DNA of 64,000 nucleotides from assembly GCA_002224055.1 (NCBI GenBank), contig AZLU01000147.1:1-64000 (forward strand), read 5' to 3'. Shown in pieces: positions 1 through 64,000 of the stretch. The translations under genes and the position numbers were made by a program. Origin of the DNA: Pezizomycotina sp. ARF18. Taxonomy: Eukaryota > Ascomycota. Every line of letters starts with the position of its first letter. Positions within the stretch are counted from its first letter, which is position 1. Under the pieces are notes generated by a model that saw only the letters and a list, made by a program, of their open reading frames with translations, was not told where the DNA came from and ran no database searches.

Positions 1-3000
1 CGCGCTCTTGTTCGCCTCCTTTGGCCCACAAAACTTGAGCAAGCAGGCATATTACGTCGGGGTTTCTGAAGACTCAGTGAGTGTGGCCTTGAAATGCTCA
101 GACTATCGTCATATTGCCGGAGAAGTATGCGCAAGCCCAGCCGTGAGGTGAGCCGACAAGCGACATTGAGCAAACTCGTATTGTCTTCGGACAAGGCCAA
201 GGCAGTAGACGCGTTCTCGATAGCACTCCTCGTAGTCGCTTTTGCCCAGCACGCTCTAGCCAGGTCGGCTTTTGCTTGGCAAAAAGTTCCAGTCCTTTTC
301 GGATTCACTTTCTTCGTACTTTGCTCGATATCCCGCAAACTTTGAGAAGCCTTTGCACTGCTCCTTCGATCTCCCATACGTTCGCTGTAAAGCGCAGATA
401 AATGAAGAATGTACGGTTCACCCAACGATTGCTGTTCTAATTTCGGAGAGCAAATATCGGACCGAAAAGGTTCTGAATATGTGGCTGGTTCCGGACTTGA
501 CCATGATGTCGAAGACGCGTCGCGTTATTTACGTTTCACGATTGCTAGGGATTGGAAATTAGTTTCAACGATATTCAATAACGTGGAACACACGAAAGGA
601 GTGTGCACGGGAGATTTTAAACTGCGTGAAACACTTACCGAGAAACTTCGGATATCTTGAAGGCAATGCTCAAAAAGCTCCTGCGCTTCTTGCAACCTCA
701 CCATACAACCAGTGCCACTAGCCCTTGCCCGACCCACGCGTGAGAATACTCCGGATCGGCAGATTGAGCTCGGAGAAGGTCTGATTAGCCAGTTCGTAGT
801 CCTCGTACATGAAGTAGAGAATGCCGAGATTGGTCCACAAGCGCGGCTCTGAATATTTCTTTAGCACAATGCAGTTCCATACATGTTAAAAAAAAAGTTT
901 AATAGCGTATTTACCCTTTCGTCAATATGCAGAGCTCTTACGAGAGCATGCTGAGCAACCCTGGGTCTATTTCGGACACGCATACACGAACGCATTCCAA
1001 AATTCACTGTTCCGGGGTTCAAGCTTTTATCGACCTCTTGAAGCAGCGGACGGCAGCGGAGCGGAATTTAGTATCCTTCCTCCCGACGCTACATATGCGC
1101 GGTAATGGCGCAACCGACATTGTACCAGGCAACCGCGTGGGCATACTTCCTCCAGTGTCGAATAAATACCCTCTTGTACGCCAGAATTGCGCCGTAGAGG
1201 CCTGCGTCAGCGGCGAAAGCTTTTCAAAGCCTTCGAGTTCCTTCGAGCCAATGTTCCTTCCTCGTGAAGAATGTCGTACTCTTTCACGTCTATATTGGTA
1301 ATGAGTATCTTCTTCAGCAGCTTAGAACGGAATATCTCCAGGGACTGCTGAATCAGGAGAAAACGGTACAAGCATCGCCGACTAGTTTCCAAAGGTTGAA
1401 CGCGTCCGGACGGACATCTACTACACGGCTTCCACCTCAAGGCATTCGACAGCAGCGTTGGCAGCTCTGCCGTAGTATCCATTTTGTAGGTTATGCCACG
1501 ACGAAGCTACAAGGGTCCTGCTAGAGCAAGCATAACCCCAAATTCATCTTGCGCGACTCCAGAACTTCTCTGTAACTTTGGCATGCCTCCTCGAACTCGC
1601 CGAGCTCTTTATGGACATTCGCCACGATGTATTTACGAACCAGTTATCGTCGTCTATTTACGGGCCTGGTTGAAGCATTTCATAGCAGACAAAGTATCTG
1701 CCGGAGCTTGCGTAAGCTTCCCTAATCCAACCCAAGAATGAAAAATCATTACTTTGAGTTCCTAGGGCCGTTGGAATGCTTTGAATGGCCTGGGGGAAAT
1801 TATGGGCGTTCTGAAGGGCCAGTCAGCTCAAGGACCAAAAAGTGTATAATGTAACAAAGAAACAATAAAGATTTACAATTTCCGAAACACCGATAGCAAT
1901 CTGTGGCCAGGTTGCTGTCCTGCCAGGAGTTGTTCGCTTCTTCTCGGCATCTGCAGCTCTGCGAGCAACAATTTCGACAACTTCCCATTCGCCATCATTT
2001 GCAAAAGCCCTTGCAAGCCTTCAGCGGCTTCGAATTCACCAGAGAAATTTCAAATGCCTTCGGAAACATTGCTAGCTCTCTCAAGTCCTGTTCTATATCC
2101 TCGTAGTAGACTCCGAGACTGTGTAAGCCGGAGCAAAGTTCGGATTACTGCGGAGACGCTCGCAGGAAATAGTCGTAACCCTTCGTACGATCTTGCGCCC
2201 TTCAATGTCTGATTCCCATAGAGCTGCTCCGATCTCCATAGCGTCAAAGCCCGCAAATCTTTAGACCGCGCGTCGTCACCGGAGATCTGCTCGAGGCAAT
2301 GTTCGAGCTGCACTCTCCGCGTCGTAATTCTTCAGAGCACGTTACAACCAAGCTGTTTCGGAGACTATGAACGGGTTCGTGGAATCTTTATCAGTGCTAG
2401 GTTCAAGGATTGAACGCTCCTTGGTAGTCTCCGGCTTCTTCCAGGATAAGACCATGGCCAACCAAGGCACCACCGTTTGTAGGATTTCGCTTGAGGACGT
2501 CCGAAAATATTGAACTCGCCTCAGGATGAAACTTTGGTGTCCGATAATGCACTAATGCCGTAGCAAGAGTTACAGAAATTGCATCCATGTTCCTGTGAAT
2601 TTTTATATTAGCATTTGTATTCCGGAGCCGCCGAGAGCATTGAAGATTGCTAAGATAATACTCACTCGGAGTAATCCACTGGCAACCTCCTCAGCGGCAA
2701 CAACCTAAGTCCTTTCGCAGATCTCGACCGCATTCTCGTATTCTTTGAGGAATATATAGTAGTCACCGAGGATTCTATGACAAAGCACAGAGCGAGGGCT
2801 TCTCGAGGCCGTCCTGTTATTCGAAAGTTAGGCAAAATTTGCCAAAATATATGGAATGATACGCAAAAACTGTTGCACATACAAGCATGAAGTCTAGCCT
2901 TTCGTCCGGTCCTATCTCTGGTCCCATATCAGGTATCAGAGACACTCCTCCACCATCTCAGATTCCGACTGTCTCTCTTCGGTGTCTTCCTTCACCGTGC

Positions 3001-62829: not shown

Positions 62830-64000
62830 ATGTCCGCCCCGAAGTTAAAGGCAGATTTTTGTCCGCTCCAGACCACATTGGCGTTACAGCCGTTGGCTTC
62901 AGCGGTGGCCAGGTTAGTAGAGTTCCTTCCGCAATCTTGCTAGATTACAAGAGACAGCAAAAAAAAAAAAAAAAAACGCAGAAGCAAGAAAAAGGATTGA
63001 AATTGCGACACTCGACGATAAGGGGGTTTCTGGGAATTTTATTGGAATGCTGACGGGCAATCGGCTTAATTTTTCTAAACAGGGCAAGAAAGGTGTCGAC
63101 ACTGCTCCTACGGCTCTTATAGAGAATGGTCTCCTCAAATCGCTGCAGGAGGACCTCCAATACACTATCCACCACGACAATGTCCTCCACACGTACAAAG
63201 ACTTCATCCTGCCGAAGATCCCTCGATCGACGGTATGAAGAACCGATGGCCGTCTCAAACGTAACAAAGCGCCTCTCAGAGCAGGTCTACGAGCAGGCTT
63301 CTCAGGGCAGGCTCGCCCTCACTCTCGGCGGTGATCATTCGATCGCTATCGCTCCGTCTCTGGCGTTGCCAAGGCGATCAGAGAGCGCCTGAACAAGAAG
63401 ATCTCCGTCATATGGGTCGACGCCCACGCCGATATCAACACCCCCGAATCGAGCGACAGCGGCAACGTCCACGGCATGCCAGTCGCCTTCCTTACGGGAA
63501 TCAGCAAGCACAACATATTCGGCTGGCTCACGGAGGAGCACCTAATCCGATCGACAAGCTGGTCTACATCGGCCTCCGAGACGTTGATATCGGAGAAAAG
63601 AAGATTCTGAGGGAGAACAAGATCAAGGCCTTCAGCATGCACGAGATTGACAGGTACGGCATCGGCAAAGTCGTGGACATGGCACTCGAGTACATCGGAA
63701 ACGAGACACCTATCCACCTTAGCTTTGACGTTTGATGCCCTGGATCCCTCTCAGTAAGTCAACTTCCTAAAGGCTCATTTGACTTTGAAGTCAGCACAAA
63801 AAAAAAAAAAAAAAAGAGCTGAACCTTATTTTCCCACTCTTAGCGCTCCGTCTACGGAACCCCAGTAAGAGGGGGTTTAACATTGAGAGAAGGAGATTTC
63901 ATTTGTGAGAGCGTACACGCAACGGGTAACCTGGTAGCTATGGACCTTGTAAGTTCACGATTCCCATTTGCATTGAAAGCCCTCTTCGGCTTTGACTTGC
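62830..64000 (+). CDS. CAR1: Arginase (3' end beyond window)
   Basis: Arginase hydrolyses arginine to ornithine and urea using two manganese ions. The start is MSAP at 62830, continuing EVKGRFLSAPDHIGVTAVGF. An intron (62913-63081, with an A18 run) leads to GKKGVDTAPTALIENGLLKS. Metal ligands are all visible: GGDHSIAI near 63330, DAHADINTP near 63420, and DVDALDP near 63730. The next intron also holds an A17 run; the following exon reads TPVRGGLTLREGDFICESVH. The last part lies outside. Six one-base errors break the frame: CCCC at 62837-62840 (should be five), CCC at 63220-63222 (four), CC at 63243-63244 (three), G at 63351 (two), CC at 63541-63542 (three), and one extra T in TTT at 63731-63733. 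Motifs are intact, so I regard the gene as functional. Usual length is about 320 residues. Confidence 0.95.

What the first reader, a model, noticed from the sequence alone, without database searches (positions are those of the whole stretch)
1..64000. Systematic one-base homopolymer errors fragment almost every long gene
In SKI3, PEP4, BCK1, APC1, the 26.9-kb unknown, PRM15, the hydratase, the NLR-like gene and arginase, the frame is lost and regained around short runs of one base, and adding or removing one base in that run restores a family-typical sequence. Sites read directly: 2014, 4435-4437, 6509-6510, 6747-6748, 7175-7176, 11401-11402, 24609-24610, 27120-27121, 31732-31733, 32070, 32884-32887, 33209-33213, 62837-62840, 63220-63222, 63243-63244, 63351, 63541-63542 (all losses) and 63731-63733 (a gain). 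Catalytic residues and splice sites are untouched. Only the two shortest genes, HNH and F-box, are unbroken, as expected from a per-base error rate. This points to an unpolished long-read assembly and means any ORF-based reading of this contig will report false pseudogenes and split genes.
Basis: partly seen in the sequence, partly recalled or inferred. Interest (0 to 1): 0.75.

Follow-up and report, generated by a model that had tools for sequence, protein, structure and literature searches.

The report
Sequencing errors break this fungal genome
The broken genes in this stretch of an unnamed fungus's genome are almost certainly errors of an uncorrected genome assembly, found in many parts of the genome, so it is an ordinary quality problem and not biology.

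Summary
In the window's arginase and PEP4 a frameshift-aware alignment finds 8 single-base losses and 1 gain in 669 codons. Pfam pieces show more in APC1, VPS41, the PGM-type gene and the hydratase. Of 18 listed sites 8 are called, 4 are consistent, 6 could not be settled.

The fault is not local. Five HSP70 genes on other contigs break alike. Seven genes pooled: 54 one-base and 4 two-base losses, 3 gains in 3,316 codons, no in-frame stop. Intron-free controls: 0 in E. coli dnaK and hscA, 4 in 16,616 back-translated codons. The mitochondrial-type HSP70, aligned codons only, is 78-83% identical to 31 intact orthologues, so selection still holds the protein.

Residual run lengths at 54 losses fit random deletion and exclude loss only in runs of three or more; runs up to A34 survive. 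Best reading: inadequately polished, probably thin-depth long-read consensus; platform and depth unknown. An artefact of low interest.

The parts
62838..63951 (+). arginase gene (continues past the window end) in frame-broken pieces; frame changes near 63206-63222, 63241, 63351, 63541-63549, 63730 and 63854
   Evidence: frameshift-aware alignment: 5 losses, 1 gain, 2 introns, 279 codons, no stop on the path; whole-genome search with an Orbilia arginase finds strong matches only here, plus two weak ones on C125 and C72
5951..7854 (+). PEP4-type vacuolar aspartyl protease gene, 5 introns, frame changes near 6507, 6749 and 7174
   Evidence: alignment of 390 codons, 3 losses, no stop on the path; Pfam Asp pieces in different frames
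19515..25260 (-). APC1 gene in overlapping pieces of different frames; frame changes within 24607-24766 and near 23425
   Evidence: PF12859 pieces 2-130, 136-685 and 685-755, and PF21282, in ORFs of different frames
54163..56053 (-).
   Evidence: PF23556 profile 2-130, 140-250 and 248-332 in three ORFs; the join at 55253-55283 is tight, the one near 54762-54822 could hold an intron
   Evidence: PGM_PMM_II profile position 80 ends one ORF and begins the next, one base short; second piece 18.6 bits, below the cut-off of 29.3
33112..33473 (-). enoyl-CoA hydratase family gene; frame change within 33186-33243
   Evidence: two ECH_1 pieces, profile 48-143 (72.1 bits) and 125-168 (25.3 bits, below the cut-off of 27), offset by one base
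   Evidence: Pkinase hits 4-122 and 122-243, same frame

Best explanation
The frame breaks are consensus errors of an inadequately polished, probably thin-depth long-read assembly of an unnamed Pezizomycotina fungus. Shown: single-base indels, nearly all losses, occur at several per kb in conserved nuclear genes on several contigs; the proteins between them are conserved; the aligner's path meets no in-frame stops; arginase has no second strong copy in the assembly. Inferred: the bases were dropped when noisy reads were collapsed to a consensus, at more or less any base and not mainly in long runs. The platform, depth and polishing are unknown.
For: Seven genes on six contigs: 54 one-base and 4 two-base losses, 3 gains, 3,316 codons, 0 stops on the path. 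Two further weak HSP70-like matches (C44, C10) were aligned and left out for low score. Controls: dnaK 0 in 614 codons, hscA 0 in 573 codons at a score like C3's and C303's, 36 back-translated intact relatives 4 in 16,616 codons, all four in PEP4. 66 abutting frame changes on 36 of 67 contigs entered, in five families. The longest open frame per 5 kb is alike in the window (154-488 aa over 12 blocks) and in eight stretches of other contigs (165-399 aa). The mitochondrial-type HSP70, read from aligned codons only, is 78-83% identical to 31 orthologues; its end branch of 0.19 is twice the median of 0.092 but not flagged as long. Published parallel: in fungal nanopore assemblies indels inside and outside homopolymers fall as depth rises, and unpolished assemblies score 1.1-3% complete (PMC9453082, passages).
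Against: No reads, transcripts or assembly record could be examined. The usual homopolymer signature of long-read error was not found. Rates vary: one APC1 piece matches PF12859 in a single stretch of 444 residues while other genes carry 8-12 indel bases per kb; among the seven genes heterogeneity is not significant (chi-square p 0.09). The mitochondrial contig also shows breaks: one abutting change, nad2 broken twice by eye, and TAA or TAG inside 5 of 8 Pfam matches, some of it intron run-in, so the link to read depth is only suggestive. The kinase domain in the window holds one TAG. The controls have no introns, and the back-translated relatives are close kin of the profile rows, so they are easier cases than this fungus. 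C208 and C303 match the profile's top residue at only 40% and 49%, so their counts are less sure. The aligner penalises stops, though less than two frame changes.
Confidence: 0.95

Rival explanations
1. The genes are true pseudogenes: the region, or the genome, is decaying under relaxed selection.
For: Frames are broken, arginase has no second strong copy in the assembly, and the window's kinase domain holds one TAG.
Against: Housekeeping genes on other contigs are hit too (HSP70, CCT, RNA polymerase). Protein sequence between breaks is conserved. 0 stops on the path of 3,316 codons, where 3 substitutions per indel would give 6 and 5 would give 10; at 1 per indel 2 are expected and 0 is not surprising.
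Confidence: 0.02
2. The indels are in the DNA and the cell restores the frame by pervasive ribosomal frameshifting or by insertion editing of RNA.
For: Losses outnumber gains, 58 events to 3, and the proteins are conserved.
Against: No slippery heptamer near 54 losses, 0.4 expected. Run context looks random. No such system is known to me in nuclear genes of fungi (recalled, not searched).
Confidence: 0.01
3. The apparent breaks are misread introns or diverged gene families.
For: The genes do have introns, 83-224 bases in arginase, PEP4 and the C49 HSP70.
Against: The aligner models introns, and many breaks abut: DNA spacing differs from protein spacing by one or two bases. dnaK and hscA, as diverged as several of the HSP70s counted, give none.
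Confidence: 0.01
4. Only this contig is faulty, for instance a low-depth haplotig or contaminant.
For: None found.
Against: HSP70 genes on five other contigs, from 41-kb C303 to 759-kb C3, carry 4.5-12.6 indel bases per kb against 2.6 and 7.2 in the window.
Confidence: 0.01

Closest known systems
Gene-fragmenting indels in long-read bacterial assemblies (Kastor paper, PMC12007338; passages read)
   Same: Mostly false deletions that split genes and inflate pseudogene counts.
   Different: There deletions follow runs of 2-8 bases, most often 4-5, and errors are under 0.05% of the assembly; here about 0.65% of the coding bases examined, and no run bias beyond chance.
Filamentous ascomycete nanopore assemblies at low depth or unpolished (PMC9453082; passages read)
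   Same: Indels both outside and inside homopolymers in three conserved genes at low depth; completeness 1.1-3% before polishing.
   Different: Platform and depth of the present assembly are unknown; long A/T runs survive here.
Watson and Warr on protein prediction from long-read assemblies (seen only as cited in PMC12007338)
   Same: Indel errors make false truncated genes.
   Different: Not read here.

Membership tests
Uncorrected long-read assembly error | Single-base indels throughout the assembly, not in one locus | tested here: met
   66 abutting frame changes on 36 of 67 contigs entered, of 408 in the assembly; six contigs quantified
Uncorrected long-read assembly error | Indels far above a clean sequence under the same method | tested here: met
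   6.5 indel bases per kb against 0 in dnaK and hscA and 4 events in 16,616 back-translated codons; the controls have no introns
Uncorrected long-read assembly error | Losses outnumber gains | tested here: met
   58 loss events against 3 gains; 50 net -1 and 16 net +1 of 66 abutting changes (my tally)
Homopolymer-length error | Losses concentrated in runs of three or more | tested here: not met
   12 of 54 sites have no residual run; 3.2 expected under this model, 0 of 400 simulations reach 12
Homopolymer-length error | Losses concentrated in runs of two or more | tested here: inconclusive
   Both this and uniform loss fit
Uncorrected long-read assembly error | Fewer errors in high-copy DNA | tested here: inconclusive
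   Mitochondrial contig C50: 1 abutting change in 1,239 matched codons against 21 in about 3,100 for nuclear HSP70 (my sums); but 5 of 8 PF00361 matches hold TAA or TAG and nad2 looks broken twice by eye; the rRNA search did not complete
Uncorrected long-read assembly error | Reads or transcripts disagree with the consensus | not testable with these tools
   No reads held
True pseudogene | Relaxed constraint and stop codons by substitution | tested here: not met
   0 stops on the path of 3,316 codons; 78-83% identity for the mitochondrial-type HSP70, branch not flagged as long
Programmed -1 ribosomal frameshift | Slippery heptamer at the site | tested here: not met
   0 of 54, 0.4 expected

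The most novel reading that the evidence does not exclude
The indels are real and this fungus restores frame in a large part of its nuclear transcripts, by insertion editing of RNA or by context-free frameshifting. The sequence evidence here cannot by itself exclude it.
Probability: 0.01. Interest if true: 0.95.

Novelty: not a real feature. Interest (0 to 1): 0.08.

Why it matters
It is a practical warning. Gene predictions, pseudogene counts, gene-loss claims and absence claims from this assembly are unreliable at the level of single genes, and the same caution holds for other findings from this window.

Tried and rejected
Species identification: the mitochondrial-type HSP70 tree puts the genome beside six Orbiliomycetes rows (support 100/98, end branch 0.19). 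The 120 listed arginase relatives are 35-50% identical to the broken query, and the 120 listed PEP4 relatives 44-48% over 88% of the query or 72-77% over 23%. Two paper searches for the assembly size and contig number showed nothing fitting among the 4 and 15 papers listed, the second out of 1,663.

Allelic copy: none for 54992-64000, only repeat-like matches; the rest of the window was not searched as DNA. Structure searches: one APC1 frame and three PGM frames gave little. A WD40 search was useless for this purpose.

Run-length test: the first version compared with undeleted sequence; the fairer version simulated deletions in unbroken stretches. Neither supports a homopolymer bias. I did not test which base was lost, which would tell uniform loss from loss in pairs. 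Homopolymer counts in the window and in 60 kb of other contigs look alike.

Mitochondrial test: two Pfam families only, no references, exon-split genes, so weak.

Rows dropped: I entered all 47, 38, 9 and 33 rows of Asp, HSP70, RPB1 and CCT but only 71 of 121 Pkinase rows, chosen mostly for having a neighbour on the same contig; some rows with neighbours were left out. A few of the 66 'abutting' pairs span a protein gap or a nested match (for example C124, C74) and are loose. C44 and C10 HSP70s were left out of the pooled counts.

Full report
What was checked. The window is the first 64,000 bases of contig C147 (103 kb) in a 46.36-Mb, 408-contig genome held without a name. It is a Pezizomycotina fungus by its nearest relatives; in a tree of the mitochondrial-type HSP70 it stands beside six Orbiliomycetes rows with support 100/98.

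The window. Three-frame reading shows arginase (62838 to the end) and PEP4 (5951-7854) in pieces of alternating frames. With a stiffer penalty arginase keeps all six and PEP4 keeps two. Pfam pieces add one-base frame changes in APC1 (two places), VPS41, the phosphoglucomutase-type gene and the enoyl-CoA hydratase; some of those pieces are below the curated cut-off.

The list. At least three further frame changes were missed (near 63854, 23425 and 55253-55283), and so was a whole broken gene, VPS41.

Is it local? No. HSP70, chaperonin, RNA polymerase, aspartyl protease and kinase matches elsewhere fall into abutting pieces of different frames. From the rows that I entered, 66 abutting changes lie on 36 of 67 contigs; 50 are net -1 and 16 net +1 by my tally, and a +1 can be two losses. 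Quantified with the aligner, indel bases per kb of coding are 7.2 (arginase), 2.6 (PEP4), and 4.5, 8.4, 12.6, 4.6 and 5.4 for HSP70s on C49, C70, C3, C208 and C303. Pooled: 54 one-base losses, 4 two-base losses, 3 gains in 3,316 codons, 6.5 per kb, near Q22 for indels. With the stiffer penalty the five HSP70 rates are 4.5, 7.2, 8.7, 4.1 and 4.3. Two weak HSP70-like matches on C44 and C10 were left out of the pool. The longest open frame per 5 kb is alike in the window and in eight stretches of other contigs.

Is the method sound? E. coli dnaK gives 0 frame changes in 614 codons. E. coli hscA, whose score of 1171 is like those of C3 (1169) and C303 (1157), gives 0 in 573. Thirty-six intact relatives kept out of the profiles and back-translated give 4 in 16,616 codons, all in PEP4. 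These controls have no introns, and the relatives are close to the profile rows.

Pseudogenes or errors? The mitochondrial-type HSP70, read from aligned codons only, is 78-83% identical to 31 intact orthologues; its end branch of 0.19 is above the median of 0.092 but was not flagged as long. No in-frame stop lies on the aligner's path of 3,316 codons; at three substitutions per indel 6 would be expected, at one per indel 2. The Pfam match of the window's kinase domain does hold one TAG. Arginase has no second strong copy. Decay is therefore very unlikely.

Is it homopolymer error? For 54 losses I took the interval of near-equal placements and measured the longest run left there: 12 have none, 31 a pair, 11 three or more. 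Deleting bases at random in unbroken stretches of the same genes predicts 12.0 with none, and loss only within runs of two or more predicts 14.5; both fit. Loss only within runs of three or more predicts 3.2 and is excluded (0 of 400). Runs of A or T up to 34 bases survive in the window and up to 33 elsewhere, which speaks against wholesale truncation of long runs. The words 'systematic homopolymer errors' should be dropped.

Depth? On the mitochondrial contig C50 I count 1 abutting change in 1,239 matched codons, against 21 in about 3,100 for nuclear HSP70 (my sums). By eye, pieces of about 100-230 codons of nad4, nad5 and cox1 look whole while nad2 looks broken twice (gene names recalled). 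Against this, 5 of 8 PF00361 matches hold TAA or TAG, some of it intron run-in. This suits an error that falls with depth, but it is a weak test; the rRNA search that would have been a better one did not complete.

Editing or frameshifting? No slippery heptamer lies near any of 54 losses, 0.4 expected, and run context looks random. Nothing here can exclude a novel restoring mechanism outright, but nothing calls for one.

Literature. In four filamentous ascomycete nanopore assemblies, indels inside and outside homopolymers in three conserved genes decline with depth, and unpolished assemblies are 1.1-3% complete by BUSCO (PMC9453082, passages). In bacterial long-read assemblies most indel errors are false deletions, there tied to runs of 2-8 bases (PMC12007338, passages).

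Verdict. Real observation, most likely right in its main diagnosis, not supported in its mechanism label, and of no biological interest beyond the warning.

Noticed in passing
   Followed up: partly
G000:C50, for example L069-L080: The mitochondrial contig is at least 206 kb, with cox1 matches spread from 136069 to 206518, so cox1 would span about 70 kb, presumably by many introns; a second match to the start of cox1 lies at 91811.
   Followed up: no
58758-60609: A stretch with 74-92% identical matches on other contigs, partly within an AT-rich block (58001-60000 is 30% G+C); looks like an old repeat.
   Followed up: no
whole window: Very long A/T runs (up to A34), with 7 runs of exactly 18 A or T in the window against 1 in 60 kb elsewhere; the excess at 18 may be chance.
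   Followed up: partly
29372-29935 (-): The F-box-like ORF is open over 188 aa, but its three Pfam matches are below the curated cut-offs.
   Followed up: no
G000:C49 HSP70 (L052): The genome branches as sister to six Orbiliomycetes rows, at some distance, perhaps a poorly sampled lineage of Pezizomycotina; one gene only.
   Followed up: partly
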